Positions 3,230 through 63,531 of a DNA stretch of 64,000 bases are shown here, piece after piece. The stretch comes from Chondrosia reniformis (lineage: Eukaryota; Porifera; Demospongiae; Chondrillida; Chondrillidae): the NCBI GenBank assembly GCA_947172415.1, contig OX359198.1, positions 4,743,401-4,807,400 on the forward strand. The letters are read 5' to 3'. The position numbers were made by a program, and so were the translations under genes. Every line of letters starts with the position of its first letter. Within the stretch, counting starts at the first letter, position 1. Under the pieces are notes generated by a model. The model had not been told where the DNA came from. It saw only the letters and a program-made list of their open reading frames with translations, and searched no databases.

Positions 3230-5816
3230 TCATGAAGTCTCATATTTCTCCAGCCCAAGTTGTATTTTGGCAGAACGTACTGTATTCATTAGCAATCCAG
3301 CCACTGTCAGTGGCCCCACCCCACCAGGCACAGGTGTTATTGCACCAGCAACATTAGCCGCTGTTGCAAAATCTACATCTCCAACTAGTTTAGTCTTGCC
3401 ATTATCAGCTGAAAATAAGAAAACAGTATATAGCTACACATAACTAATAGGCACACTGATATGAACATAACAAGATAGCGTTGCTGCCAATTTTAGCTGT
3501 TGTTAACAATCTAAAGTCCTAGATATTATTGATACTTTACGTACTTGTTATTCTGTTTATTCCAACATCAATAACAACTGCACCTGACTTGACCATGTCC
3601 TCTGTAACCAATCCTTGCTTACCAGCACAAACTATCAAAACATCTGCTTGCTTGGCACAAGAAGCAAGCACCTCTGGAGGAGTATACACATGGCAGGTTG
3701 TCACTGTACCATTGAAGCCACCTAGCAAGTGTAGGGAATACAGGAATTAGTGAATTAAGTAAATAAAAAATAATTCACCAAACAACAATAAGCTTAAGAC
3801 CTTGGTTATAATGGCTAGAGAATAAACATTATAATGAAATTGAGATTAAGAAATGATAGTGTTCATTGATAAAATATATATTACAGATGGTTTCAAGGAT
3901 ATGCGTTACTGCACGAGATGCAGGGGCCACAAAATGAATACTTGTACTATGCTTAGAAACTACGTACTTATATTCAATTTCATACATACTGTAATAACAT
4001 GTATTAAACTATGTATGTCAGCTTCTATCCTGAAATTCTAGTGCTCTCAAATGCAAGGTGTTACGTAAATGTAGTTACGTACATGCAATACATTTAAGTA
4101 ACCTTCAGAAAATATCTTTGAAATTGGCCCACCAACATGTCTGGAGGCACCAACCACACAGACCTGTTTCCCCTTGATATCAAATCCACACACCTAAAGC
4201 AGTACAGCACATGTTAATTGTATGCAGACAATATCAGCATTACAATGGTATTAAAAGTGTTATGGCTGAACAAACTTAGGCATTGAGCTATACACACTCA
4301 ATGAGCTATACACACTTACCTTAATCATTTCTTCGATGCCTTTGGCTGTGGCTGGCACATGCAAAGCCGTGCCAGCATACAGTCGACCCAGGTTAGTGAC
4401 ACTGAAGCCATCCACATCCTTAACGGGAGTCACACTGTCACAGACCAGCTGAGGAGAGATGTGTTCAGGGAGAGGGAGCTGCACCAAGAGACCGTCCACT
4501 TCACTATTGGCATTCAGTTCATCAACTAACTTTAGAACTTCAGCCTAACAAAAGGGAAGACATACGTACCATCTCAAACAGACCATGACCTCATAGTAAC
4601 ATAGGATGTATGTCCTTGATTAAACACTGCGACATTATTTTTTCATGCTGCTTTGAGGTTCGGTAAAATATTGCTAAATACATTTTCTCGTGGAACATGA
4701 CCTCAGGATCATTATTTAAGGAATGTTTTGAAACTTAAACAGCTTATCCTCCAAATCTAATTTCTACATAGACCTTCAGTAAATCTCTCAAATATTAAAA
4801 ACACTTTTTAAAATAAAGTTTATCCGATAATGCTACATGCTGACCTGTGAGGTAGAGGCTGGAAGACGATGGGTAAAGTCTTTTATTCCTACTTCCCTGG
4901 CTGCCTTAGCCTTTCCAGACACATAGGCTTGAGAGGCAGGATTGTCTCCCACCAACACAACTGCTATACCGGGAGCTCTGCCACACTTAGTCTGTAGGGA
5001 CATGATGTGGAGAAAGGGACATACACTATACTTTATTGGAATAAACAAATAATGATACGACTTTCAAAATATTAACAATTAAGCAGAAATATAATAAGAA
5101 TAATAATCATACATATATATTTGAGTTCAGATAATAATAAAACAAAAAATAATTAGTATATAATAAAACCAGACAATTAATAGTCAGTGAGCCACAGGTT
5201 CCCAATTAAACAGATATTTTATAATTAAAAGTTCACTCATATTTGGCTATAAAACATGTACGTATCAGAAATTTATTGTTATACTACTTTATGCATACGT
5301 GCATGTGTGTGTACAATCAGAAATTTCACACCGTCCATCTTACATTGTTCAGGTTTATACAGTACATCAATAACTGCAGAGATCATGTGAAATAAACTTG
5401 CTTACCTTCATCATTTCAATATCTTTTGTGAGGGTATCCCTAATATGTTTAGCTACAGCGTTCCCATTGATAACTCTAGCCGAACACCCATCCCTTGTGA
5501 CTAGGAAAGGTGAGTTGGGTATTACCGCTGTGGTAGAGTAGCTCCTAGCAACGAGTTGCCTGCAAGAGAAGTATGTAGGAAAATTATCTCAATTGGTACT
5601 TGAGGCAGAGCTGGATAAAAAGTAGATCAGTCTTCAAGATAATCTATTGAGCTAATAATTCTATGACGGTATGCCCCAGACGACTGATATTAACGTAGCT
5701 GAAAGCCAACTAAGTATTGCGTACAGGGCTACAGGAAGTATTAACGGATGATTAAGATTAACATACCTGAAGCTACCATGATAGATTTTCTCAAAAATAG
5801 ATCTAATGGTGGCCAT
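3230..5816 (-). CDS. MTHFD2: Bifunctional methylene-THF dehydrogenase/cyclohydrolase, mitochondrial type
   Basis: This enzyme oxidises 5,10-methylene-THF and hydrolyses the methenyl product to 10-formyl-THF in one-carbon metabolism. Seven exons on the minus strand fit in phase: 5816-5767, 5559-5406, 4991-4845, 4544-4320, 4193-4103, 3721-3545 and 3408-3230, giving about 340 residues (human MTHFD2 is 350). The N-terminus [19 protein letters not shown] is basic and hydroxylated, as expected for a mitochondrial presequence. Family motifs in order: [14 protein letters not shown] with the downstream substrate-binding Lys region, [27 protein letters not shown], the NAD(P)-binding [21 protein letters not shown] and [17 protein letters not shown] near the C-terminus. 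The YTPPE and KLVGDVDF stretches resemble MTHFD2/MTHFD2L more than the cytosolic trifunctional enzyme, and there is no synthetase domain. The stop is TGA at 3230-3232. Confidence 0.95.
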
Positions 5817-7454: not shown

Positions 7455-8516
7455 TCACATGCTGTCACATACAATGGTTCTCTTCTTATTGTAATCTAAG
7501 TGCATATAGAGATACGTATATAGCAATTGAATTAATATATATGATTATTATGGGTTATATATGTATGTATGCCTAATGTATGTTTTACTTCACTATAAAG
7601 TAGATTGGAATGTAGTCTTTAAGTGTTTAGTACCAGACATTGACAGTTACTATATTATCTGAATAGAGGCCTGGGCTTCTATTTTGTTCCAATCATTTTT
7701 GACCTGGCCCTTCAATTCAAGCCCAGCTATTAATAAAATAATGCTCTTAGAGCCCACACCCATCACCCTAGCAACCTCTTACTTAGTCTTTGCAGTGGAC
7801 TAGGCCTTTTACTTGAAGGAGACATCATCGGAATGTCCCTTTGGGAGCAATGCTGCAAACTCATGCAAGTATGTAGTACATGCCATCCTTTGCGCAGCTT
7901 CCTTACTTAAAGTCCTATGTATAAACATGCCGTCTATATGAATGTACTTGTTACACATTGGATTATGGTATTTAATGAAAGCTCGAGGGAGAAAAAGAAA
8001 TATAATTGTATAAAATTAGTTACCTACCTAAATATCTTGAGAATAAAAATAGATTTCACATGCAATGCAGTATGTATATAGATTAATGTCATTTTTAGTA
8101 TTGATATAGTCGGTTGTTGGCTACTTAAATTACAACCTTTGAAATAACCTCTGTGATGGACATTTTGTCTCAAGCTAAACTCTATATGTACAGGTTACAG
8201 GTAAATCTCAAAACAGACAAGTTTGCAACTATGCAAACAGCACCTCGCAGTTGAGTGCTTATACAAACATAATGTCTTAATTTCAAGTCACAATGCATAC
8301 AGAACTCTTGTAAATGAATAGCGGAACGCTTAAGCCTCACACAACGACGTAGACTATGTACTACCACTCGCATGAGTAATTATAATGCCTGTAGGAGTGA
8401 CGGATTCCTTTAAAGCTTAGTTAAAGAGATCAGGAAGGAAGAAAACGGATCGTAATACTCAGATTCTCCTACAGCAAGCGGGGCACAGAAATAGTTGGAA
8501 GTCGGACAGTCGCGTT
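7455..8516. other. Intergenic stretch without a recognised gene
   Basis: This stretch follows the TRAPPC2 stop and precedes the Ser/Thr-rich membrane protein gene. It should contain the TRAPPC2 3' UTR and the promoter of the next gene. I see no exon with a protein family signature and no clear inverted repeat. Confidence 0.5.
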
Positions 8517-9779
8517 ATGTTCGTAATAACCACACTTATTGCTGTAGAATTTGCCATGACTGTGGGGATTACTACCAATACAACCACATCTGTACAAATA
8601 AAAGAAATTAGTCTAACCGACAGCTTTTCTTCCACATTAACCTCATCCCCCGATTATACACCATACCCAGATGCTTTGACGACTAGCAATAATACGGTTG
8701 CGGGAGCAGTCTCGCCCTTGCTTCGAAATACGGCTTCTAACCAGTTAGATCTTGAAGAAAGAACACCATTACATCAAAATAGTACAGCTATTTGGTCCTC
8801 TTCGCTGTCTCCCTCATCATCATGGAAGACAATTGAAAGATTATTGACAACCGTTTATCCAGACGCTACACTCATGATCATGTACTCTAGCGCCTCTAGA
8901 AATGAATCAGTGTTGAATACTGTTAATGATCCTCCGAGTAATGGTTAGTACGGACTTACAAGCTTAATTTTATAGATCAATCTGTACTCCCGTACGCTCC
9001 TGCATGCTCTAGCTACGCATGTGTCCAGTGCATGTCCTGGACATACATGTGTTGGGTTTCCTGTGCATGTCACATGTAAACATGAAACATCTATAGTATA
9101 CCATTTTCCTACATGCCTATTCTGTAAAAAAGTCTATAGGGAACTAAACCTGGAGAGAGAGCTTTGGATAAAGATACAGAAGTCTCTTCTTTCTGTCTTC
9201 TTTTCTTCTCTTCCTTCTACTTCCTTCAGCTCCATTGGGCCAGACAGCTGCGTGTTTCTGGGAATTGCACCCTTCATCAGTGACCCTGGGAATCTTTGCT
9301 TGATCTTTGTGAATCCTTAATTGGCACAATGCACAGGCCATGTAGGACACGTACAGAACATATAAATACTCATGCATTCATAGCATATATGACTGAACAT
9401 ATAGCTCTTTGATACAGTAAAGCAATTTACTCTATTTGTAATTATAAGGGTTCATTTATAATTTATAATAATACATTTTGTATATCTATTAGGAATGGAA
9501 ACCACAGACAGTTCCTCTGATACCATTTTAAATCCTGGTATTCTTCTGGGAATATCCGTAGCAGCATTAGTATTATTTATTCTACTTGGCTTACCCTTCA
9601 TTCTAGTACTTCACAGGATCTCTAGATTTACCATCCATGGTAAAACTGAGAAATCAGACGAGAAAAGAGAATGTATGGGTCCAGAGAAACTTAAGAGGAG
9701 GAATTCTTGGAAATGGGTTAACAACTTCAAGTCAGAAATCATTCCAAATCAGTCTGCACAGGATATTACGTCAGTGTAA
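8517..9779 (+). CDS. Ser/Thr-rich single-pass membrane protein (mucin-like ectodomain)
   Basis: I do not recognise a family. Two exons (8517-8943 and 9493-9779, phase 1) give about 237 residues. A hydrophobic N-terminus (MFVITTLIAVEFAMTVG) fits a signal peptide. It is followed by about 140 residues very rich in Ser and Thr with several N-x-S/T sites, as in O-glycosylated stalks. Exon 2 encodes a transmembrane segment (ILLGISVAALVLFILLG continuing into LPFILVL), then a basic cytoplasmic tail with KLKRRNSWKW, an RRxS-type phosphorylation motif. The layout resembles the neighbouring receptors (type I, phase-1 intron before the TM exon) but it has no Ig or FN3 module. The intron carries a dispersed repeat at about 9120-9250. 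It could be a surface mucin or adhesion stalk; that is inference. Confidence 0.75.
9120..9250 (+). repeat. Dispersed repeat ending in CTCCATTGGGCC
   Basis: The sequence GGAACTAAACCTGGAGAG, a TTTGGAT box, a pyrimidine-rich tract and a CTCCATTGGGCC end recur at about 11240-11325, 45335-45400, 56740-56805, reversed at about 58530-58615, and as TIRs at the right end of the window (63858-63985). This indicates a multi-copy non-coding element. Confidence 0.65.
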
Positions 9780-10608: not shown

Positions 10609-13600
10609 ATGTGGTTATGCTTTTGGTGTCAAATTATTGCCCTTGATTGTGAGTATCTAAATACCGCACATGTCCTACGATCATTAGATTAGCTTTGATC
10701 ACTTCTTGTATGTAGTCGCCTTGAGTCAGTCAGTGACATTCTATACTCTCCCTGAGAATGCGACAGTGATAGAAGGAGGAAGTGCTCGTTTTGAATGTAA
10801 CGTTTCTTTGCCGAATTATCGATGGTACTTAACGCCACCTCAAGCAACAGGACTACCACCCGTACCTATTGGGGCGAACAGAACTGACATCGCTGGACTC
10901 TCTGGTGCGTACGTGTTAGGAGGAACACTGATCCTCGACGGCGTACAGACCCTGCTACAGTCTTCCACAATTGCTTGTGCAGTTGACACTGGACCACCTG
11001 ATTTTAACGTTGTGACACAAGACCCTCCCTTTGCACACTTAATATTAGCTTGTAAGTTGACGGATTAGTCAGAGCTATATAATCAATGCACCCTCTGGAG
11101 TGATGGTGAGGATGCGTGTCTTCTCTTCTTGGAAGCACCCTAAAGTCTCAGCACTTTCGAATAATCAATACACCATTTTTCATGTATTTACTTAGCCTCA
11201 TGTTGATTTTTCTTACATGCTATACATCTACTTTAGAATAAAGGGGAACTAAACCTAGCGAGGGCTTTGGATGTGGATGCAAGAGGTTTCTCTTTCTACT
11301 TCTCTTCTTCTCCACTAGGCCATATGCATTTTAACTTAATACATGTAGATAATGTTTCTTAATGTAGTCCCTCCAAACATTACATCTAACACAACTGCTG
11401 ATATTGCTTTGGAAGGAGATCAGTTTACTCTTCGTTATACCATCAAAAACACAGAGTCTTTAAACTTTGAAGTGACTAAGGATGGAGTGAATGTCTTGTT
11501 AACCGGAGATAGACTTTGTGTGGATTTGACAAGTATGACCATCAATAATGTGAACCGTACCGACAGAGGAAACTACATCATCACAGTGACTACATTAGCT
11601 GGGAACGACTCCATCTCATTTTATCTAGATGTATACTGTAAGTTAATGTAGCCTGCATGTGACCTTTAATATAACATGTAAAATGTCCTCACTCTGACTG
11701 ATTAGATGTTGCAGAGTTCCCTAAAGTGAAGAGAATGGAGGAGATTGGGCAAGGGAACACATTTACATTGAACTGTACACCATCGGCTGCAAATCCTCCA
11801 CCTAGTAGCTATATGTTTGAGAGAGATGGAGTGGACATCACAGAAGGAGTGAGTGGATCCATCTTAACTGTCTCTTCTTTGGAGAGAAGGGAAGATAGTG
11901 GAAACTACACTTGTATGGTGACTAATGAAGCAGGAAGTGTTACCATATCAATATATTTGAATGTATTAGGTGAGTGTTAAGGTAAACTATCTACAGTTAC
12001 TATAGGAAGACATCGATATAGATATACAATATATACAGTGAAAAGGAGAGCTAATTGCACTAAGCCTGCATGTGCAAAGGTTTTTATAGAAATAATTAAT
12101 CATAGTGCCTGACCAACCAAGTGACCAAAGTCTGATCTTGCAATTGGTTGGGAATAAATGGCAACTAGTGATCACCACCTAGTCTTCCAAGATGACAAAA
12201 ATCATCAAACAAACCACAGACAGCTGTTTCACTCTTATTAGGGTTCTTCGGTGGTGAGTTTAGAAAAAATGGCTTAATATCGATCTTCCAGTAATATTTT
12301 CTTCCAGTGATATTTATCACATACAATATCTGGATATGTGGTAATGCAGATATATTTATGATTATATTAGATTACTTAGTATAATGTAACTTGCACTGTA
12401 TATGTATATATATATTCAACTATATATACGTACGTACTTATGTACAAAAATTAAACTTACCTTCTAAATCATGATTCAATTTGCCACATCTTCAAACCTT
12501 GTAGCTCCTCCAACTGTTCCAAGGCAATTGATGTCAGTAGGCAACAGTCCATTCAGTGTCACTCTAATTTGGGAGGTGCCATCTGATGAGGAGGAACTAG
12601 TCAACCTCTCTCCTACACTGTCAGAGTGATAAATGACACTGCTAGCCTGTCCTTCAGTACAACTTCAATTCAATTGATCGTAATTATGGATGATGGAATA
12701 TGGCACAGTTCAGTGTATAGTGTAATAGTATATTCTGAGAATGAATATGGAGTCAGTCCTTCAGCAGCCAGTACCTTTACTACACCTGACTCGGGTATGT
12801 AAGATGTAGTTCCATGTAATGTATAGCTAGGGTATATGAGTATTTGTCTGTTATATATGTAGTTCCTATTATTGAGAGTGTATCAGTTGAAGCACTCTCA
12901 TTAGCTATTCTATCAGTAAATGTTGCAATACTGACTGATGGAGGACAGAGAGTTGACAATTATACTGTAAGAGCTACATATATATGTATATGTGTATATA
13001 TATTCTTCCATCTATATACATGCATGTAGGTGCAATATATATATATTCCTCTATATTCATACATATATAATACATTTCATTACTGTTATCAGATTGTTCT
13101 GACAACCAGTAACAATTATTTCAATGGAAATACGACTATTACAATAATACTTGATAGTGCAAAAGGTCCATTCAGCATCCCTATATTAGAAGGAAGACAA
13201 CACGTTGTCATGGTGATTGCCACTAGTCAAATTGGAGAGAGTATGGCTTTCACAGTACCCTATATATCAGAGCTACCATGTATGTTAATACTCATATACG
13301 TACATGCAAGTAAATGATATCTTATCTGTGTTTTTCCATTTTATTTATACGTATATAGCTACTAAACCAATATCAAAATCCAGTGATGTAGTGGGTGTGG
13401 CAGTGGGTGGGGCTTTAGGTGGCTTCCTGTTAGGAATAATAGTCACGACAGTGTCTGTAGTTGGAATATACATTTGCTATATCAGATGTTACCATAGAAA
13501 CAGTGAGTGGAATTGGGGCCTATATGTTTATATACTTACATATTACATACATATATGACTGGCCATGCAAAATGATGCAATTTGCAATTGTCCAGCTACT

Positions 13601-15947: not shown

Positions 15948-18900
15948 ATGAATATGTCCAGAAAAGACTTAAAGCTCTTTGTTCTGTCATTTATAACAGG
16001 TTTAAAATATGTTAATGGTACAGTATGTGTGCATTATTTAAGTTATCAGTATATCTATAGAGATTTCAGTGCTTCCAACAAAGACCATACATTGATACCA
16101 CTCTTTGTTTAGGTACATCATGTTATTATAGCTATAGAGCATGATCGAGAATGATGCACCTAAAATATATATACCATTCTATAGATATGGAGCTATAGAA
16201 ATACTGTATGGTGATTTATAAATGAAACCTGACTATATATATACAGCTATATATTTATGTCAATCTGATCACTTTTTATATATAATAGTTAATGCTACAG
16301 TACACATCGCTCAATTGCAACCTCCCAGTGCTATTGTTAGAGTTGGTACATCGCTGCAAATGACATGCATCACAACTGTGGATGTTGCAGTGAAATGGAA
16401 TACAAATGCTTCTGGGATAGATCTCAACAGACTAAACACAGTCATAATGCATAACGGATCAGGCTATTATCACCAGAAAACCATAAATAATATACAAAAG
16501 GAGCTTAATTTCACTTCTGTATGTTGCAGTTATAATTCTGGACATACAAAGAGCAATGTTTTGATTTTGAAGGTGTTTGGTAAGTTAAATTATCTTGATA
16601 CAGTATATAGAATGCTCAATGTATGTTATATTTTGTATATAGTAAGCATTAGTACATATCAATGTAACATGCAAAATAATTGTACTAGGTTCTGAGAACA
16701 TATGCATGTTAATTATAACTATATATCTGTTATAAACATGTGACTAATTTTGTGGGTTTTGAATTCTACATTCTCTTATTAGTAGTGTATATACTTTACT
16801 TGGCTTTTGTAGATCATGTTGGGCCGGTCACTGACCTAATTGTTTTATATGCTGTGGAGGAAAATCTTCCTATTTTTCTATGTTGGTCTGCACCTTGGAG
16901 CTATGTTCCTATTACAGAATACATGCTTCAGATATGTTCTAGAGACAATAAGTGTCATGCTGGTAGAACAGTGGCCAAGAGTGAGAAGTCTTGCTATGAG
17001 CTCAATACGTTTAAAGGAATTAACTACATTGAAGCAAATCAATCCAGCATTTCTGTAGCAACAATAACAAAGGAGCTTGGAATTGGACAAAATAGCACAC
17101 CAATAGTCACACCCATGCTGATATGTGTGTAATTGTATAAAAATATATTACTGTAATAAATTAAACATATATATCAGAAACTGTTTATATTGTATGTGAT
17201 ATATGTAATTAATGTCAGACATGTATGCATTAATATGAATGCTATATGGCAATCTTTAGTTTAAATTAATTTTACTATTATAACCTGAATCAGTTTTAAC
17301 TAATTACTATACTCAATCTAATTATGTAATTCGAGTTGTTCTATATTTTATCTTAGATTCAGCTATCCCCAATTACAAAAGAAAGAGAGTGACACTTACG
17401 AAGCTTGAAATTAATCTTATATATGGATTGTCAGATTTGGGAAAATCAAAAGTATTGATATACGTATAGATAGACAATAATATATATATGTCCGATATGT
17501 AAAAGAGTTAAAATATATCATGCAAATAATTATATAACATATTATTATATTTCATTTATGCACAATTTAATGTATATAGTTATTGTTTTACTTGAGCAAG
17601 GATGCATTTCTCGTCTTGCAAGACTGTGAAAGTAACTATAGACCTTCACCTTCAATTCAGTATGTACCTCTCCCCAAGTCACAATCCTGTATTATATTCA
17701 GAATGCAGGAAGTCATGTGGCTACTAACAGGTTCATACAGTTTCATAAGTAAGACTTATATACTTTTGGCTTATATAATATATACATGATTATATACTTT
17801 TTCCACAAATGTGTATCCATATACGTATATGCATGTTCACACCATGTATAGCATATTTGCATTTGCGTATATACCCATACATGTATGCATGTGACATATG
17901 TCCAACTTGATTGATTCAAGGCTATTATTATGAAAAATTTTATTGTTCTCTAGTTATAACTAAGATATTATGTGCTCTTTTGTGAACTTCTTCTTAGTGA
18001 GTAAGGAGATTAACATTAGCAGTAATTGTAATAATAACTTTACGGAACCTCAGCTACATGAAGGTATTAATTTAAAAATACTCATATAGTGTACATATAT
18101 AAGTTAAATAATGCAACATGCATGCATTATATATGCATTCTAACCTAAATTTACTTTGTGTAACATGCATTTATTCTTGGGCTGCCTGAATGCAATGGCA
18201 ATGGGATAATAATCGTATTCTCACTTCTGAAATGTTTCTGAATTGTTATATAAATGATTACATTTGTAAAATTTATCAATTAATTTGAATATACATTTGT
18301 TCAGGAACATCTTTTAGATACTGTAACAATGTAATATTGCATATGCAGTTCATATTTTTAATTAAAATTAATATGTAAATATGAATTTGAAAAGGCTCCA
18401 AGCTTTGAAAATGAATTTCCTATATTCAACATCCATTTTACGTACATAAATTTCTAAATATTATACATATATAGATTCATCTTCAACCAATTACCAGACA
18501 ACAGCTACAATTATAATTGGATCTGCTTTTGGTAGTTTCACACTATGTCTAATAGCAATCTCACTAGCCACATGCCTGTACCTGTACAAGAAGTTAAAGG
18601 CAATATCAAGCAAGCAATTAATGCAAGGTAAATTTCTTTCAATCATACCTAATATATATATATGGATCATGATTATGCCTCAAGAGCCTCTTGCATTTAT
18701 ATATATAGTGGCTACATTGCACACATATCATTTTTAATGTGTTTATCTTTTGCATTTCCCTTTATTAATTGAGTGTTGGCCAATACGAGCCCTCCACTCT
18801 GATCTGTCCACTACTGCTTCTGTCCAGTCTGCCTCTTAGGACCTGGCTGATCATGATAAAGTTGCAACAGTGTAGAGGCACACCCCCAGTTAGTATCCTC

Positions 18901-19523
18901 CTGCATGCCACTGGGTCTGCACCTCATCAGCTGTCTTTTGGGGACCATTGGTATATAGACATCCTCTATACATGATCAAACCATTGAAGGAATCTCATCC
19001 TGCATGAGCTGCTCCTCCACCAGCAACACCCCTGGCTGTATATTCTAGGATGTCTGTGTTCCCAACTCTGTTCCACTGGGTGATCCCTAAGATGTCTGGA
19101 AGGCATCTCGTCTGAAAGGACTTCCTGTTGTGTCATGATTTACCGTCCATGTTTCAGCTCCATACATGACCACAGACACATATATACTATACTGTTTGCT
19201 GATGAAAATCTACTGGTTGAAACGTCCTATTATCAATAATTTATGTTGCTGTTGCTCAATAATACCCCTGGATTAAAACACATATACTAGTATACCCTTT
19301 TCTTGCAGATCCAGTGATAAATCAATCTTCAAATGAATATCAGCTGCAGGAAACCAATGTCTATGACCAGTTAAATAACAGTAGTGGTCAGAAGATATAT
19401 GAAGAAATAGAGGATAAGTGTGGGTATATGGTCATGCAAGGAGCAGCTGCAAGAGACAGTGTTGGAGTTCAATCTTCACTTGTTGGATTAAAAAATGCTA
19501 ACCCAAAGAAATTCCAGAACTAA
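15948..19523 (+). CDS. Ig/FN3 transmembrane receptor T with an ITAM-type cytoplasmic tail
   Basis: Eight exons in consistent phase: 15948-15999 (signal peptide MNMSRKDLKLFVLSFITG), 16289-16579 (Ig-like, LQMTC to VCCSY), 16813-17124 (FN3, LCWSAPWSYVPITEYMLQI), 17357-17463 with 17580-17748 (second FN3-like module), 17998-18063 (short N-glycosylated stalk), 18475-18627 (TM, ATIIIGSAFGSFTLCLIAIS) and 19309-19523 (tail). The product is about 454 residues. The tail contains YDQL, eight residues, then YEEI, fitting the ITAM consensus YxxL/I-x(6-12)-YxxL/I with acidic surroundings (EEIED). In vertebrates doubly phosphorylated ITAMs recruit Syk-family kinases; whether that holds here is unknown. The exon-1 donor (GTTTAA) is weak; GTACAG about 21 bases on is an alternative with the same phase. 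Confidence 0.82.
18775..19175 (-). mobile_element. Decayed non-LTR retrotransposon (LINE) reverse-transcriptase C-terminal fragment
   Basis: On the minus strand, three motifs typical of the end of LINE RT ORFs occur in order, in different frames: YGAETWTV (about 19170-19140), ILGITQWNRVGNTDILEYT (about 19090-19035) and WFDHV-stop-RM (about 18985-18965). Frameshifts and stops make it dead. It lies in the last intron of receptor T in antisense orientation and is GC-richer than its surroundings. Confidence 0.8.
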
Positions 19524-43185: not shown

Positions 43186-46100
43186 ATTGGAACGTCTCAA
43201 GTATTTTTGGTATTGCTAGGAATCTTAGTTACAGGTATGTCAATATGAAATAGTAATAAAATTATTAAATATATACGTATGTATATATACACACACACAA
43301 TGGAGAACATATTCCTAAACTCCTTCTGCAGGTTACATCAAATCTGCCATGGCCGTACTGCATCAGAATAAAAACTGACAATTTTGAAATTAATGTATAC
43401 GTATATGACCTACAGACTCTGCTATACAGCTATGAAAAGTTAATTTATAGGGTAGATTATGTTGTCTATAGTGACAATCTGTATAATATTGCTACGTACG
43501 AGTCTGCCAGTAGCATATACCGTATATACATTCTGTGGTGTTGCACTATACGTACACAGTGCAGTGAATATAAAAAATTATCCTACTAGCACTAATGCTT
43601 CTTTAAAATCTCTGTGTGGCTAGCTACAAGATTTTCTGTAACTACACTAGCTGGGAATGTAGTACTAATGTTAGGGGTCAGAATTCAGACACTTTGGCCC
43701 TATCAAGGACATTCTTTATGGCCTCTAGGGCACACCTCTGGGGGCATGGCACATCAGGACAGAACCTCACACTATGAACAGGGATGAAGGCCCACTATAT
43801 ACCATCAGTGTACAACCCACTGATTCAACAACTACGCCGGGCCTATTGAGAGCCCCCTCGTAGACTGTGTAGACTCCCCTTCCCCTCCTATTTATCCTTA
43901 TAATCATTTTGCTAATTCTACGGCATGGCTTTTCTATTATTATGTTAGCATTACATCATCACTTCCATTATCATATTTCCTCCCATTGTACGTGTATAAA
44001 GTTATCTTACCCCTTGTACTGTACAATATCACTGAAGAGGGCTCCGGATAGGGCTGAAATGTCTAAATTCTGACCCATAACATTGGTCCTATTTGATTTC
44101 TGGCTAGTATAGTTACAGAATAAATCAGTATAATGCTAGTATATACTCTCTAAAATTAATTGTGATGACATATTGGCACCCTTGAGATGCATATATACAG
44201 TTCTCCAAGTCTAGAATATATATTGGTGCAGGCTTGTCTCACCCAAACATGCCAGATTACTTTAGTTTACTTACATGTTTGGTATAATATACTGTATATA
44301 CTGTATAGCCTGAAAATTGGACAGTATTTTAATTTGCCTTCAAAGTGGGTTCAAATGATTTTGACGGAATTTAATTTGATGGTGTTGCGGTTCAAGGATG
44401 TGTTGTCATCCAGTCAACAATGGCCTAGTACACTGCCGCTCGGTCTGGTTATTGTATATAGTAACTAGCTACGAATGTAAACATTGACAGAATTAATTAG
44501 TGGTAACCAGCTAGACAATCAAACAGTCGAAATCACTGACAAATTCCAGCTAATACAGTATGCTATATATATTCTAATAATTAACTGTATATATATATAT
44601 TTACATGACAGTATTGCAATATTTTAGGAGAATCAGCAATTAATCTCACTACCCAGCTCTCCCCTCCTTGTCTGGGACAAAGTTACCAACTGAACTGCAC
44701 ATTTACAACAGATGGATGGGATGTAATACGCTGGCAGAGAAACGGGCAATTCACTTTTAGATTGCCCATTCAATTACAAGTTTTGTATATTTACTCAAGC
44801 AATGGTCATTATCATGAATTATCCTACCTTGAGATAACAAGAGAGCAGTTTAAAGATAAAGTATGGCACTATCAGTGCTATGCTCTCAATGTTAATACTA
44901 ATGCAAAGAGATTCAGTAATGAAATCACCATTGATGCCATTGGTAAGTATATAGCACGGACTATAGAGTATATACCGATATATACATCTAGTTTATACGT
45001 ATATACATGGATCCTGAAACTGCTATATATTTTAAAGCATTTAAAATTCTCACTGTTGTATAAGTCTACAAATGTGTATAGTTTAAATTAGCCTATAAAT
45101 TATATAATTATAAACTTATAATATAGCTTCTATTTGTTGCAACTTCATATGTTTATATTATCACTTTAACTTTTCACGCATATCAAGTAAAATGGTGTAA
45201 CATGAAATGAAATTTGGCTGGACTAATAGAGAGCATGAAAAGAATCAAGATTGGTGTCTCATGGCCCATTCGATGTCTTTTGTAATTATATATAACTTAA
45301 AAAACAATTTCTTATATAGCTACTTTGGGCAAATCTAAATGGGCTTAGATGAGGATACCATTTCTTCTCTTTCTACCTCCATTGGGCACAAGGCATAGAC
45401 GTATTATATACTATGTATATAGGTGCTGATTGCAATCATAATAGCATTTGAGTTAATTTTTTCGACCTGTAGGCATTACGGCTCTTTGACACATGTACAC
45501 AACTTGTTTCTCAAATTAAGTATCAATATAATCAGTGTGAAAGCTGTATATTTTGCTGCATGTATGTACAAGTATATATGAGTAATGTTTCATGATCATT
45601 CAAAACATACCTCCCTTAACCGATGACAATAAAAGACGCATGCAGTTTACATACAACGTACATAAATAGATACAGTGAATAACATTTATAACTTTTTGTG
45701 CATGATTAACCTAATAGATAGAACAGTATAATAATCTTATGCATGCAAGCAAAAACGAAGTAAAAGTAAAAAATACATTTATACATTAATATCAATATAT
45801 ATATATGATTGATTGTTTGCTCAAACCTCATCATTATAATATTATGATGTACCATATTAGAAGTGGCAGTTCCTTCAGCTATCAAGATAACTTCCAGCAG
45901 TAATCAAATTGGGATACACTTGTTCCATGACCCTAGTCGCAAATGTTATGGACAGTGTGTATTTACCTTCCACGTTACATGGATTCCAATTGCAACATTC
46001 AACATCACCCTTCTGAAGAACACAACTATAAGCAAATTTAGTAAATTGTTTTATTCTACTACTATATTATTAACAGAATTAATATCAAATACAGAATACT

Positions 46101-46541
46101 GTGTGAAAATTACTGCACACTGCATTGGTAACAATGATGCCTTCAGTGATCCATTAGTGCTAAATGTCTCCACGCATGCACAGAAAGAGATAAAAAATAA
46201 AACTGAAGTGAAAAAAGGTATAATATATAAAGTATTTAAATTAGTATATATAATATATATATTATACTAATTTAAAAACCTTTTATATGTATATTTCACT
46301 TGTGTATAATATAGCTGCAAATGTTTCAGAGCCCTCAACGGTTTGGATAGCCATTTCTGGTGTATTAGTCTCACTGTTCATAAGCTCCTGCTGTGTCTTC
46401 CTTGCTACCTGTGTTCATGTAGCTATTTGGAAATATAAGAGGATGAAGACGCACGCTAGCACCAGTTCCTCCACTGTAGTGTGTGAGAAATGTGAACGTG
46501 AGCAGATGGATATGAATCCTGCTTACGGAGCTGTTATTTGA
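43186..46541 (+). pseudogene. Ig/FN3 transmembrane receptor, duplicate 1 (start codon lost)
   Basis: Four exons: 43186-43234, 44628-44942, 45861-46217 and 46315-46541. After the signal peptide (GTSQVFLVLLGILVTG) come an Ig-like domain (PPCLGQSYQLNC to VWHYQCYAL), an FN3 domain (FTFHVTWIP, NTEYCVKITAHCIG), a TM segment (TVWIAISGVLVSLF, then a Cys-rich CCVFLATC) and a short tail ending MDMNPAYGAVI. The downstream frame is fully open (about 315 codons). The first codon is ATT where duplicate 2 has ATG, with an in-frame TAG upstream and no other ATG in the exon. Without an alternative first exon or a near-cognate start this copy cannot make the signal peptide. The tail has NPxY; it is not an ITIM because Pro is at -2. 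Confidence 0.8.
43671..44080. mobile_element. TIR element in receptor intron 1, copy 1
   Basis: The ends TTAGGGGTCAGAATTCAGAC and GTCTAAATTCTGACCCATAA are imperfect inverted repeats, continued inside by GGCCCTATC / GATAGGGCTGA. The body is GC-richer than its surroundings. The same insertion is in the second duplicate (55081-55476), so it predates the duplication. Confidence 0.7.
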
Positions 46542-54579: not shown

Positions 54580-57500
54580 ATGGGAACGTCTCAAGTATTT
54601 TTGGTGTTGCTAGGAATCTTAGTTGCAGGTATATATGTCAATGTGAAATAGTGATAAAATTATCAAATATATACGTACGTATTATATACACACACACAAT
54701 AGAGAACACATTCTTAAACTCCTTCTGCAGGTTACATCAAATATCTGCCATGGTTGTACTGCATCAGAATAAAAACTGACAATTTTTGAAATTAATGTAT
54801 ACGTATATGACCTACAGACTCTGCTATACAGCTATGAAAAGTTAATTTATAGGGTAGATTATGTTGTCTATAGTGACAATCTGTATAATCATGCTACGTA
54901 CGCATGTCTTATATTTATATCAAGTCTGCCAGTAGTACTTATTCTGTGGTGGTTGCACTATACAGTGCAATAAAAATAGTGTTTATCCTACTAAATGCTA
55001 CTTTAAAATCTCTGTGTGGCTAGGTTCTGACGTGATAGTTTTTTTCTGTAACTACACTAGCTGGGAATGTAGTACTAATGTTAGGGGTCAGAATTCAGAC
55101 ACTTTGGCCCTATCCAGGACATTCTTCAGGACCTCTAGGGCACACCTCTGGGGCATGGCATATCAGGACAGAACCTCACACCATGAACAGGGATGAAGGC
55201 CCACTATATACCATCAGTGTACAACCCACTGATTCAACAACTACGCCGGGCCTATTGAGAGCCCCCTCGTAGAAAGTGTAGACTCCCCTTCCCCTCCTAT
55301 TTATCCTTATAATCATTTTACTAATTCTACGGCATGGCTTTTCTATTATTATGTTAGCATTACATCATCACTTCCATTATCATTTTCCTATGAATAAAGT
55401 CACCTTGCTTTGTACTGTACATCATCACTGAAGAGGGCTCCGGATAGAGCTGAAATGTCTAAATTCTGACCCATAACATTGGTCCTATAAGATTCCCAGT
55501 TATTGTGATTGCAGAATAAATCTATGAACACTAATGCTAGTATACTCTCTAAATAATGATGACATATTGGAGCCCTTGAGATGTATAATAATACATGTAC
55601 AGTTCTCCAAGTCTAGAATATATTTTGGTGCAGGCTTGTCTCACATAAATATATACATGCCAGATTACTTTGGTCATGCATGCATAATATTAAAATTACA
55701 TGTTTGCATATTATATGGGATATAACTAGATATAATATAGCTGGAAAATTGGACAGTACATTTAAATTTGACGGTGTTGCAGTTCAAGGATGATGTGATG
55801 TCATCCAGTCAACAATGGCCTAGTACACTGCCGCTCGGTCTGGTTATTGTATATAGTAACTAGCTACGAATGTAAACATTGACAGAATTAATTAGTGGTA
55901 ACCAGCTAGACAATCAAACAGTCGAAATCACTGACAAATTCCAGCTAATACAGTATGCTATATATATTCTAATAATTAACTGTATTTATATATATATATT
56001 TACATGACAGTATTGCAATATTTTAGGAGAATCAGCAATTAATCTCACTACCCAGCTCTCCCCTCCTTGTCTGGGACAAAGTTACCAACTGAACTGCACA
56101 TTTAAAACAGATGGATGGGATGTAATACACTGGCAGAGAAACGGGCAATTCACTTTTAGATTGCCATTTCAATTACAAGTTTTGTATATTTACTCAAGCA
56201 ATGGTCATTATCATGAATTATCCTACCTTGAGATAACAAGAGAGCAGTTTAAAGATAAAGTATGGCACTATCAGTGCTATGCTCTCAATGTTAATACTAA
56301 TGCAAAGAGATTTAGTAATGAAATCACCATTGATGCCATTGGTAAGTATATAGCACGGACTATAGAGTATATACCGATATATACATCTAGTTTATACATA
56401 TATACATGGATCCTGCAACTGCTATATATTTTAAAGCATTTAAAATTCTCACTGTTGTATAAGTCTACAAATGTGTATAGTTTAAATTAGCCTATAAATT
56501 ATATAATTATAAACTTATAATATAGCTTCTATTTGTTGCAACTTCATATGTGTATATTTATCACTTTAACTTTTCACGCATATCAAGTATGTTGAAACCA
56601 AAATGGTGTAACATGAAATGAAATTTGGCTGGACTAATAGAGAGCACGAAAAGAATCAAGATTGGTGTCTCATGGCCCATTCAATGTCTTTTGTAATTAT
56701 ATATAACTTAAAAAACAATTTCTTATATAGCTACTTTGGGCAAATCTAAATGGGCTTGGATGAGGATACCATTTCTTCTCTTTCTACCTCCATTGGGCAC
56801 AAGGCATAGACGTATTATATACTATGTATATAGGTGCTGATTGTAATCATAATAGCATTTGAGTAATATTTTCGACCTGTAGGCATTACGGCTCTTTGAC
56901 ACATGTACACAACTTGTTTCTCAAATTAAGTATCAATACAATCAGTGTGATAGCTATATATTTTGCTGCATGTATGTACAAGTATATATGAGTATATAAT
57001 GTTTCATGATCATACAAAACATATCTCCCTTAACTGACGGCAATAGAAGACGCATGCAGTTTACATACAACGTACATAATATAGATATATACAATGAATA
57101 ACTTTTTGTGCATGATTAACCTATAGAACAGTATAATAATCTTATGCATGCAAGCAAAAACAAAGTAAAAGTAAAAAATACATTTATACATTATTATATA
57201 TATGATTGATTGTTTGCTCAAACCTCATCATTATAATATTATGATGTACCATATTAGAAGTGGCAGTTCCTTCAGCTATCAAGGTAACTTCCAGCAGTAA
57301 TCAAATTGGGATACACTTGTTCCATGACCCTAGTCGCAAATGTCATGGACAGTGTGTATTTACCTTCCACGTTACATGGATTCCAACATTCAACATAACC
57401 CTTCTAAAGAACACAACTATAAGCAAATTTAGTAAATTGTATATCATTAACAGAATTAATATCAAATACAGAATACTGTGTGAAAATTACTGCACACTGC

Positions 57501-57981
57501 ATTGGTAACAATGATGCCTTCAGTGATCCATTAGTGCTAAATGTCTCCACGCATGCACAGAAAGAGATAAAGAATACAACTGAACTGAAAAAAGGTATAA
57601 TATATAAAGTATTTAAATTAGTATATATAATATATATATTATACTAATTTAAAAACCTTTTATATGTATATTTCACTTGTGTATAATATAGCTGCAAATA
57701 TTTCAGAGCCCTCAACGGTTTGGATAGCCATTTCTGGTGTATTAGTCTCACTGTTCATAAGCACCTGCTGTGTCTTCCTTGCTACCTGTGTACATTTAGC
57801 AATTTGGAAATATGAGAGGATGAAGACGTACACTAGCACCAGTTCCTCCACTGCAGTGTGTAAGAAAAGTGAATATGAGGAGATGGATATGAATCCTGCT
57901 TACGGAGCTGTTATAGGAGCTATAAAAAAATCAAATTATACTTTCTTTAGGGCACCCAGAAACCTCCATATGCATAATTAG
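54580..57981 (+). pseudogene. Ig/FN3 transmembrane receptor, duplicate 2 (FN3 exon frameshifted)
   Basis: Exons 54580-54628 (ATG intact, MGTSQVFLVLLGILVAG), 56027-56341 (Ig-like, 315 bp as in duplicate 1), 57258-57594 (FN3) and 57692-57981 (TM and tail). The FN3 exon is 337 bp against 357 in duplicate 1: an in-frame 6-bp loss, and a 14-bp loss near 57435-57445 that shifts the frame and leads to TAA at about 57506. The TM exon is open, and because the stop of duplicate 1 reads GGA here, the tail is extended after NPAYGAVI by about 21 residues (GAIKKSNYTFF...). As it stands the product would be a truncated secreted Ig protein. In the tail, CEKCEREQ of duplicate 1 is CKKSEYEE here. Confidence 0.8.
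55081..55476. mobile_element. TIR element in receptor intron 1, copy 2
   Basis: Duplicate of 43671-44080 with matching ends TTAGGGGTCAGAATTCAGAC and AAATTCTGACCCATAA. The body ORFs differ between copies, so they are not under coding constraint. Confidence 0.7.
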
Positions 57982-60177: not shown

Positions 60178-60253
60178 GAAGGAATTGTCTCAAAGGTTTT
60201 CTTTAAAGTAAAGGATTAAACGTAGCGCAGACGTTGCGGTCAACCAGAAGACC
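60178..60253. repeat. 76-bp direct repeat, left copy
   Basis: Bases 60178-60253 recur identically by eye at 60754-60829 (GAAGGAATTGTCTCAAAGG to CAACCAGAAGACC), 576 bp apart, flanking minisatellite 1. The right copy is followed by different DNA (TGACGTACC). Confidence 0.92.
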
Positions 60254-60254
60254 A

Positions 60255-60618
60255 GAAGTGCCTGTCCTGTCTATGGTGTCTATGGTGCCTGTCCTGTCTG
60301 TGGTGTCTATGGTGCCTATGGTACCTGTCCTGTCTATGGTGTCTATGGTGCCTGTCCTGTCTATGGTGTCTATGGTGCCTGTCCTGTCTATGGTGTCTAT
60401 GGCGCCTATGGTGCCTGTCCTGTCTATGGTGTCTATGGTGCCTGTCCTGTCTATGGTGTCTATGGTGCCTATGGTGCCTGTCCTGTCTATGGTGTCTATG
60501 GTGCCTGTCCTGTCTATGGTGTCTATGGTGCCTATGGTGCCTGTCCTGTCTATGGTGTCTATATGGTGCCTGTCCTGTCTATGGTGTCTATGGTGTCTAT
60601 GGTGCCTATCCTGTCTAT
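60255..60618. repeat. Minisatellite 1, 9-bp-based TCTATGGTG / CCTGTCCTG
   Basis: Tandem array built from 9-bp submotifs TCTATGGTG, CCTATGGTG and CCTGTCCTG in higher-order units of 27 and 36 bp. Because the period is a multiple of 3 and has no stop codon in several frames, it creates long spurious ORFs on both strands. Confidence 0.95.
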
Positions 60619-60753
60619 TGTAATTTACTTTTATATTGGAATTGTTTTGATATTGTGGTCGCAGTTTTTGCCCTCGACATTCTTTTGGTAACTAGTCTAG
60701 TGCCCAAAAAATACTGTGGACTTGTTCATATATATCGACGAAGAAGGTATCGG

Positions 60754-60829
60754 GAAGGAATTGTCTCAAAGGTTTTCTTTAAAGTAAAGGATTAAACGTA
60801 GCGCAGACGTTGCGGTCAACCAGAAGACC
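60754..60829. repeat. 76-bp direct repeat, right copy
   Basis: Identical by eye to 60178-60253; see there. Confidence 0.92.
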
Positions 60830-61572: not shown

Positions 61573-62492
61573 TAACTCCCCTTTATTACATATACTTAAA
61601 ATGATAATGTGATTTTCAGCTAACATATGATAAAGGTTCATTACTACGTAGTTATGTTGATGAGTCAGGGGTGATTCCCTTGAATGTATGGGAGGAACAA
61701 GGGTTTCAGTCTGGCTCTTTCTGCCTCTGTTTGCTGAGGAGTGTCCTGACTTGGCGACCCACCTCTGCAAACTCCACCAATACCACAGAGGCAGATCCAG
61801 ACCTCTTCCTCTTAGTATTATTATCACCCCTCCCCCTATTGCGTCACTAATCCTTTATTACATCACTTTTCGATTAATGATTAATGTCTAGTATGGAGTC
61901 CAGCTATCATCTACTATTACCCTGTACAGGGGTATCTCACTACAGTTTTACTGGTCTCATATGATCATCTTGACAACATGTGACAAATTCAGTATAGATT
62001 TGATTAGGAATACAGCCTCCATCAGCTACGTATTATAAAAGTTTATAAAACTGTTATAATTTCGTTCATATAATTCAATACATTATTTGTGAACATATGA
62101 ATGACATCATTAGGTATGTTAACCTAAGACTAATTTTGTCCTCTAAAGTGGGCCTATCCTGATATTTTCAGTAGAACCATTCTACAAACAGTGATATTGT
62201 AAGTTGACCCATTCTGCAGACGATCACTATTCTCAGTGAAATCATTCTACAAATGATTGATATCCTGAGTGGCCCCCTTCTGTAAACTGCTGTCATTCTC
62301 AGCTGGTCCATTCTGTATAATGCCATGGGATAATTCCATAACTTGACTATATGTGTTTATCACCAATACAGTATGTAGCTATGTAGACACATGTATTGTC
62401 ATAGATTAGTTTGGCAGAGTTAGAAGAAATCCCTATCATCTAAAAACTCTGCTTCTCTGTAATGAAGGCCGAACTTGACTTAGATTATGTCT

Positions 62493-62955
62493 ATGCAGTC
62501 TATGGTGCCTGTCCTGTCTATGGTGCCTATGGTGCCTGTCCTGTCTATGGTGTCTATGGTGTCTATGGTGCCTGTCCTGTCTATGGTGCCTATGGTGCCT
62601 GTCCTGTCTATGGTGCCTATGGTGCCTGTCCTGTCTATGGTGTCTATGGTGTCTATGGTGCCTGTCCTGTCTATGGTGTCTATGGTGCCTGTCCTGTCTA
62701 TGGTGCCTATGGTGCCTGTCCTGTCTATGGTGTCTATGGTGCCTGTCCTGTCTATGATGTCTATGGTGTCTATGGTGACTGTCCTGTCTATGGTGTCTAT
62801 GGTGTCTATGGTGCCTGTCCTGTCTATGGTGTCTATGGTGCCTGTCCTGTCTATGGTGTCTATGGTGCCTGTCCTGTCTATGGTGTCTATGGTGCCTGTC
62901 CTGTCTATGGTGTCTATGGTGCCTGTCCTGTCTATGGTGTCTATGGTGTCTGTGG
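62493..62955. repeat. Minisatellite 2, same units as minisatellite 1
   Basis: Same TCTATGGTG / CCTATGGTG / CCTGTCCTG submotifs as 60255-60618, about 460 bp long. Long ORFs in three frames (VYGACP, SMVPVL, DTIDRTG repeats) are artefacts of the 9-bp period. It lies 5' of the second acidic-tail segment, as minisatellite 1 lies 5' of the first, so array and exon were duplicated together. Confidence 0.95.
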
Positions 62956-63531
62956 ATCTATTTCTTAGAGTAAACCTATTAGCTTTAAGTTTCAACTTAC
63001 ATACTTATTATCCACAAATTTACTCCCAATATCTCTTAATTAGGACGTAGATGCCTACAAAAACTTTAGAGATTTGTTTATCTTACAGCTTTTTGTTATT
63101 TTCTCCGTCTTAAACACGATCGAAGATCTTTACCAAAAGGATACTCATTTGATACACGTGAGTATACGTACTTGTAATATGACGTTGCCCTATGTTGTAA
63201 TATATAATGTCGGCTCGTTTGTTTTCCCAAATGGAAAAACTATTTACACAGTAAAGTAATCCCTCCATACATGGTTCTTGGTTGCCAGGATGGCACTTGC
63301 CTGATGATTAAGATAATATTATTGTATATACAGTATCAAAAGTTTGTATGTTGTCACAAAAATGCTAAAAATGTTAGCTAACTATAACGAAGCTGAGAGC
63401 ACCCAAGTTCCTTCCATGAAGGTCAAAAATAATAACTTGGCATTCTGAGATAATTGGTTTAAATGATCAAGTTGAGTAAAATGTAATAAAGGGTTAAAAT
63501 GTTTCTCAGACATTAATATTCCTTCACTTCC

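What the first reader, a model, noticed from the sequence alone, without database searches (positions are those of the whole stretch)
15948..19523. ITAM-type motif in an Ig/FN3 receptor of an early animal
The tail exon 19309-19523 encodes YDQL, eight residues, YEEI, then EDK, exactly fitting YxxL-x8-YxxI, downstream of a signal peptide, Ig domain, two FN3 modules and one TM helix. ITAMs couple immune receptors to Syk-family kinases in vertebrates, and similar motifs are known in cnidarian allorecognition IgSF proteins. Seeing one here, next to NPxY/YxxP-tailed relatives, suggests a phosphotyrosine-signalling receptor cluster.
Basis: partly seen in the sequence, partly recalled or inferred. Interest (0 to 1): 0.85.

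Follow-up and report, generated by a model that had tools for sequence, protein, structure and literature searches.

The report
Sponge Ig receptor with ITAM-like tail
A kidney-sponge gene encodes a small immunoglobulin-type surface receptor whose inner tail carries a pair of tyrosines spaced like the activating switch of vertebrate immune receptors; only a neighbouring, different tyrosine motif is shared with its two sister genes, so an immune-type switch is possible but unproven.

Summary
The motif is real. The last exon (19309-19523) encodes YDQL-x8-YEEI behind a TM exon, joined by phase-1 introns in a 346-aa model. The window is Chondrosia reniformis (demosponge) chr10. Ig is supported by a 3-sequence profile; FN3 is not confirmed.

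Chance: composition shuffles of this tail give the pattern in 0.8%, and 53 of 995 mechanical ORFs carry it. It is uncommon for one tail, not decisive. Two paralogues were found at E below 0.001 (chr1) with the same exon plan; neither has the paired motif (0 of 2). All three tails share G-Y-[M/V]-[V/I]-M-[K/Q], a YxxM (PI3K p85-type) motif.

Parts an ITAM would need are present: a tandem-SH2 Syk, a Shark/HTK16-type kinase, Src-type kinases; so is a p85 SH2-iSH2 gene. I read a multi-tyrosine docking tail with a conserved YxxM and an ITAM-like pair unique to this copy. Direct ITAM-Syk signalling is plausible (about 0.3), not shown. Interest is moderate.

The parts
15948..16017 (+). Exon 1: start codon and possible signal peptide (MNMSRKDLKLFVLSFITGLKYVN), ends phase 1 at a GT
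   Evidence: hydropathy; no signal-peptide predictor run
16289..16579 (+). Exon 2: Ig-like domain, phase 1 to 1
   Evidence: 3-sequence profile hits Ig domains in the PDB, best E 5.5e-6; Pfam below cut-off
16813..17124 (+). Exon 3: FN3-like domain (fold unconfirmed), phase 1 to 1
   Evidence: 44% and 35% identical to paralogue exons; no Pfam or FN3 PDB hit; model pLDDT 52
17357..17463 (+). Open stretch with AG/GT ends, probably not an exon of this mRNA: 107 nt, shifts the frame
18475..18627 (+). Exon 4: juxtamembrane and single transmembrane helix, phase 1 to 1
19309..19523 (+). Exon 5: cytoplasmic tail with four tyrosines and the stop codon
19338..19349 (+). YQLQ (YxxQ)
19362..19373 (+). YDQL, first half of the ITAM-like pair
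19398..19409 (+). YEEI, second half of the ITAM-like pair; no counterpart in either paralogue
19422..19436 (+). GYMVM, YxxM motif shared by all three family tails

Best explanation
A type I surface receptor (possible signal peptide, Ig-like domain, one FN3-like domain, one TM helix) with a tyrosine-rich docking tail, one of a small sponge family of which three genes were found. Inferred mechanism: ligand-driven clustering lets Src-family kinases phosphorylate the tail. The conserved GY[MV][VI]M site then recruits the p85 SH2 adaptor and PI3K. In this copy only, the added YDQL-x8-YEEI pair may also recruit Syk or Shark through their paired SH2 domains. Shown: the open frames, exon phases, motif positions, paralogue comparison, and presence of the kinase and p85 genes. 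Inferred: phosphorylation, binding and any immune role.
For: Gene model without frame break and the same exon plan in two paralogues. Searches with this protein and with paralogue B return the same three genes at E below 0.001. GY[MVI][VMI]M[KQ] is present in 3 of 3 tails, twice in paralogue B, with shuffle frequency 4e-5 or less in each (100,000 shuffles). Genome-wide the DNA pattern has 14 hits, 4 of them in these three tails; of the other 10, 9 lie in frames of 12 to about 66 aa that by eye do not look like receptor tails and one (window 12332) lies in no frame of 20 aa or more. A p85 gene: SH2 at C6:8086240 nearest to PIK3R1 N-SH2 (E 6.9e-42; best non-p85 protein 1.4e-13) followed by an iSH2 match. 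Src-type SH2-kinases, Syk, Shark type.
Against: YxxM-PI3K is itself only a motif reading; no binding or expression was tested. The iSH2 match (26.2 bits) is below the family cut-off (31.5), and 8 of 14 control genomes also ring below cut-off; the p85 call rests on the SH2. Genome-wide the GYxxM pattern is no commoner than its reversed control (14 against 19), so only its placement in the tails counts. Few sequences, one species. No RNA evidence was available. FN3 was not confirmed.
Confidence: 0.55

Rival explanations
1. A true ITAM: both tyrosines, once phosphorylated by Src kinases, bind the tandem SH2 domains of the sponge's Syk (or Shark), which then activates.
For: Exact YxxL-x8-YxxI spacing; 0.8% by shuffle; tandem-SH2 Syk with an arginine in the usual place in both SH2 domains (FLLRDS, FLVREH; placing recalled) and a Shark-type kinase exist in the genome; ITAM, ITIM or hemITAM motifs are reported on IgSF receptors of Hydractinia and Botryllus (PMC12065747, passages) and an ITAM on an oyster one (PMC11999971, passages).
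Against: Paired motif absent in 2 of 2 paralogues; Pfam ITAM profile silent; the acidic residue before the first tyrosine sits at -4, one place outside D/E-x0-2-Y (consensus recalled); the pattern is cheap in this AT-rich DNA (53 of 995 ORFs).
Confidence: 0.3
2. The YxxPhi motifs (YDQL, YEEI, YMVM) act mainly as endocytic AP-2 sorting signals, and the ITAM-like spacing is coincidence.
For: All three fit YxxPhi (recalled definition); the first lies about 30 residues from the membrane (positions).
Against: A sorting signal would not be expected to need the wider GY-x-x-M-K/Q context that the three tails share (inference); not tested further.
Confidence: 0.15
3. The gene model is wrong in the tail (different splicing, or an unexpressed gene), so the motif is not made.
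For: No RNA evidence; a 107-nt candidate exon and a 1.35-kb intron leave room for other isoforms.
Against: The five accepted exons are open, flanked by GT-AG and phase-compatible, and two paralogues share the Ig, FN3-like, TM and tail exon plan.
Confidence: 0.08

Closest known systems
ITAM/hemITAM-bearing IgSF allorecognition receptors (Hydractinia Alr family; Botryllus fuhc receptors)
   Same: Ig-type receptors with YxxL/I-type tail motifs in invertebrates whose genomes carry the associated signalling molecules (PMC12065747, passages)
   Different: No polymorphism or allorecognition data here; sequence relationship to Alr not tested; ITAM-like pair in 1 of 3 family genes only
Oyster CgIgIT2 (five Ig domains, TM, ITAM)
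   Same: Invertebrate Ig receptor with a tail motif of ITAM form (PMC11999971, passages)
   Different: CgIgIT2 has reported microbe binding and ERK signalling; here one Ig and one FN3-like domain, no functional data
Draper-Src42A-Shark axis of Drosophila
   Same: Src kinase, ITAM-type tail and Shark kinase are the same kinds of parts (PMC4503800, passages); Src-type and Shark-type genes are present in this sponge
   Different: Draper is a CED-1-family receptor, not an Ig/FN3 one (domain make-up recalled); its ITAM tyrosine was tested by mutation
DAP10/CD28-type YxxM tails that bind PI3K p85
   Same: GY[MV][VI]M in all three tails fits YxxM (p85 binding of the DAP10 YxxM: PMC10083361, passages; CD28 recalled)
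   Different: No homology tested or claimed; binding untested

Membership tests
ITAM | Two YxxL/I separated by 6-12 residues | tested here: met
   YDQL-x8-YEEI
ITAM | Acidic residue at D/E-x0-2 before the first Tyr (consensus recalled) | tested here: not met
   ETNVYDQL: E is at -4, i.e. x3 (sequence)
ITAM | Recognised by the curated ITAM profile PF02189 | tested here: not met
   Tail exon scan 0 families; genome scan at E up to 10 scored 4 candidates and gave 2 weak hits elsewhere
ITAM | Pair conserved between homologues | tested here: not met
   0 of 2 paralogues; no orthologue from another species available
ITAM | Cytoplasmic, behind a TM helix | tested here: met
   Gene model; topology inferred, no RNA
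ITAM | Binds tandem SH2 of a Syk-family kinase when doubly phosphorylated | not testable with these tools
   A Syk gene is present
ITIM | S/I/V/L at -2 of YxxI/V/L (recalled consensus) | tested here: not met
   -2 is N for YDQL and K for YEEI (sequence)
YxxM p85/PI3K-type tail | YxxM in the cytoplasmic tail, conserved among homologues | tested here: met
   GYMVM (this gene), GYMVM (A), GYVVM and GYVIM (B): 3 of 3 genes
YxxM p85/PI3K-type tail | A p85 adaptor exists in the same genome | tested here: met
   SH2 nearest to PIK3R1 N-SH2, E 6.9e-42; iSH2 hit below cut-off
YxxM p85/PI3K-type tail | p85 SH2 binding | not testable with these tools
   No binding assay
Immunoglobulin superfamily | Ig profile match and the usual Cys, Trp, Cys | tested here: met
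   Invariant C26, W36, C79; profile-to-PDB Ig hits, E 5.5e-6; single-sequence Pfam below cut-off
Fibronectin type III | FN3 profile or fold match | tested here: inconclusive
   No Pfam hit, no FN3 PDB hit, model pLDDT 52; two modules not supported
Hydractinia Alr family | Sequence relationship to Alr proteins | not tested
   No Alr sequence was used

The most novel reading that the evidence does not exclude
A demosponge Ig/FN3 receptor carries a working ITAM that engages a true tandem-SH2 Syk, next to a PI3K-type YxxM in the same tail: an activating module and a costimulation-like module in one receptor, placing Ig-receptor ITAM-Syk signalling among the earliest-branching animals.
Probability: 0.22. 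Interest if true: 0.75.

Novelty: new member of a known kind. Interest (0 to 1): 0.4.

Why it matters
Syk in sponges is already in print (PMC9486129 and PMC9601881, passages), but in the passages I saw nothing says which receptor would activate it there. This gene and its relatives with a conserved YxxM give a concrete, testable candidate, in a genome that also holds Syk, Shark-type, Src-type and p85 genes. If the ITAM-like pair binds sponge Syk, Ig-receptor-to-Syk coupling would reach back to the split of sponges from other animals; if not, it is a warning against reading ITAMs from pattern alone in AT-rich genomes.

Tried and rejected
Two FN3 modules: rejected, exon 17357-17463 breaks the frame. 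Pfam ITAM search: nothing here. GYxxM as a genome-wide enriched motif: rejected, 14 hits against 19 for the reversed control; only its placement in the three tails is informative. GRB2-like duplicates (C4:8.85 Mb), SHP-like SH2 exons (C3:9.11 Mb) and a C8 SH2 gene were looked at as Syk candidates and set aside by eye from their translations. Weak further hits of the family searches (C1:9964901 E 0.48; C4, C11, C6 at E 0.74 to 2.3) were not examined, although the C1 stretch was fetched. Of 123 SH2 matches, I translated only those on the stretches. Structure of the FN3 exon: low confidence, not searched; Ig exon not folded.

Literature: searches (34 papers, 20 listed; 49, 20 listed; 31, 15 listed; 8, all listed) with ITAM or immunoreceptor tyrosine-based and sponge/Porifera terms showed no title that I recognised as describing an ITAM receptor in a sponge; of those papers I read passages only, from eight of them, and subscription papers are mostly not held, so absence from print is not established. 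Passages of PMC5978004 say invertebrate Syk/Zap70 homologues were found only with CARD-CC/Bcl10; the words sponge and Amphimedon do not occur in its main text, so I do not take it as evidence about sponges.

Full report
What the window is. The window lies at C10:4743401-4807400 of a 117,379,552-base genome in 15 contigs. Contig lengths (C1 10.409, C3 9.416, C5 8.805, C8 8.125, C9 7.703, C12 7.522 Mb; C6 8.731; C2 10.289 and C7 8.459) match the chromosome table of Chondrosia reniformis odChoReni1.1 (117.37 Mb, 14 chromosomes plus mitochondrion; PMC12181767, passages); C4 is 8.954 against a printed 8.96. The host is therefore very probably the kidney sponge, a demosponge.

The observation. The tail exon 19309-19523 encodes DPVINQSSNEYQLQETNVYDQLNNSSGQKIYEEIEDKCGYMVMQGAAARDSVGVQSSLVGLKNANPKKFQN (the D codon spans the splice) and stops. 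Five exons (15948-16017, 16289-16579, 16813-17124, 18475-18627, 19309-19523) join by phase-1 GT-AG introns into one 346-aa frame. It could belong to another isoform using another acceptor, which only RNA would show.

Domains. Single-sequence Pfam scans give no accepted Ig or FN3 domain. A profile of the Ig exon with its two paralogues finds Ig domains of titin and antibodies in the PDB, best E 5.5e-6 over about half the profile. The FN3 profile finds no FN3 chain, and the AlphaFold2 model has pLDDT 52, pTM 0.39, with six strands that would suit FN3 but no more.

How far from chance. Shuffling the tail gives an ITAM pattern (x6-12) in about 0.8% and x6-8 in 0.35%. In 995 stop-to-stop ORFs of at least 60 aa from the window and 20 fetched loci, 53 hold the pattern, 47 of those without obvious YI/IY/IC/IH runs. 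The motif is uncommon for this one tail but cheap across an AT-rich genome, and this window alone offers several receptor tails to choose from.

The family. Searching the genome with this protein and with a paralogue gives two related genes at E below 0.001, both on C1: A (Ig exon to stop, C1:6629129-6634784) and B (C1:6645044-6647714). The tool scores only its best candidates, and a few weak hits were left unexamined. Their Ig exons are 36% and 30%, and FN3-like exons 44% and 35%, identical to this gene. Both keep the Ig / FN3-like / TM / tail plan with phase-1 introns. B may have an extra half exon before the TM. Tail A ends HEEPLYADLK and has no ITAM; tail B has one YETL and no ITAM. So the paired motif is in 1 of 3 genes.

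What is conserved in the tails. GYMVMQ, GYMVMK, GYVVMK and GYVIMK occur in the three tails (shuffle frequency at most 4e-5 each) although the rest of the tails hardly aligns. The DNA pattern for GY[IMV][IMV]M[KQ] occurs 14 times genome-wide (19 for the reversed control): 4 in these tails, 9 others in frames of 12 to about 66 aa that by eye do not look like tails, and 1 in this window at 12332 in no frame of 20 aa or more. This is YxxM, the form bound by the PI3K p85 SH2 (DAP10 example, PMC10083361, passages). Each tail also has at least one YxxL, but shuffles give YxxL/I in 29-34% of cases, so that carries little weight.

The downstream parts. A single genome-wide KWYAPE pattern hit beside two SH2 hits led to C6:6836501-6842500, whose exons read as SH2, SH2, kinase. 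The two SH2 pieces, joined, match SYK tandem SH2 at 1.3e-39 over residues 2-232, with the best protein outside Syk/ZAP-70 at 2.1e-14. A kinase piece is nearest to ZAP-70 and SYK after one EGFR entry that tops the list with no stretch passing on its own. On C5 an ORF with SH2 and ankyrin repeats (Pfam) is followed by a partial second SH2 hit and a kinase whose nearest PDB kinase, after the same EGFR entry, is SYK: a Shark/HTK16-type gene. Src-type SH2-kinase ORFs are clustered on C9. On C6:8.086-8.088 Mb an SH2 nearest to PIK3R1 N-SH2 (6.9e-42; best non-p85 protein SHP2 at 1.4e-13) precedes an iSH2 match below cut-off (26.2 against 31.5 bits; 8 of 14 control genomes also ring below cut-off): a p85 gene. 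Syk in sponges is already in print (PMC9486129 and PMC9601881, passages), and Shark/HTK16 in invertebrates generally (PMC10253181, passages).

Judgement. The comparison available here does not support the ITAM as the family's working element; it supports GYxxM. The best reading is a phosphotyrosine docking tail with PI3K-type coupling (0.55 for the whole explanation), with the ITAM-Syk reading at 0.3 and motif coincidence or endocytic use as further rivals. These probabilities are judgement, not computation, and the readings are not exclusive.

Noticed in passing
L027 (C9:1352001-1362000), local 3323-4507 and 7624-8688, minus strand: Two neighbouring single ORFs (395 and 355 aa), each with three SH2 matches in a row (three stretches confirmed by Pfam for the first) and no kinase match in the same ORF: an unusual triple-SH2 type.
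   Followed up: partly
L023 6588-6784: Paralogue A ends in HEEPLYADLK, resembling a hemITAM (acidic run before YxxL; resemblance recalled); an acidic pair with YxxL appears in 0.4% of shuffles of that tail.
   Followed up: partly
L024 about 7965-8034: Possible extra half FN3 exon in paralogue B between the FN3-like and TM exons, by eye.
   Followed up: no
window 44609-46541 and 56008-57981: Very similar tandem Ig receptor genes with NPAYG tails; the Ig exon of the first is weakly related to the gene studied (26%, E 1.6e-4).
   Followed up: partly
G000 C6:6854356-6854511 minus: SH2 hit with the same score as the Syk N-SH2 exon at C6:6841715, perhaps a second Syk copy or fragment.
   Followed up: no
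window 60207-60795 and 62436-63050: Two repeat stretches open in several frames on both strands; the ORFs there look like repeats, not genes.
   Followed up: no
L035-L038 (C4, between 2900001 and 2948000): Cluster of SH2-kinase gene copies with split SH2 and kinase exons, interleaved with other kinase ORFs.
   Followed up: no
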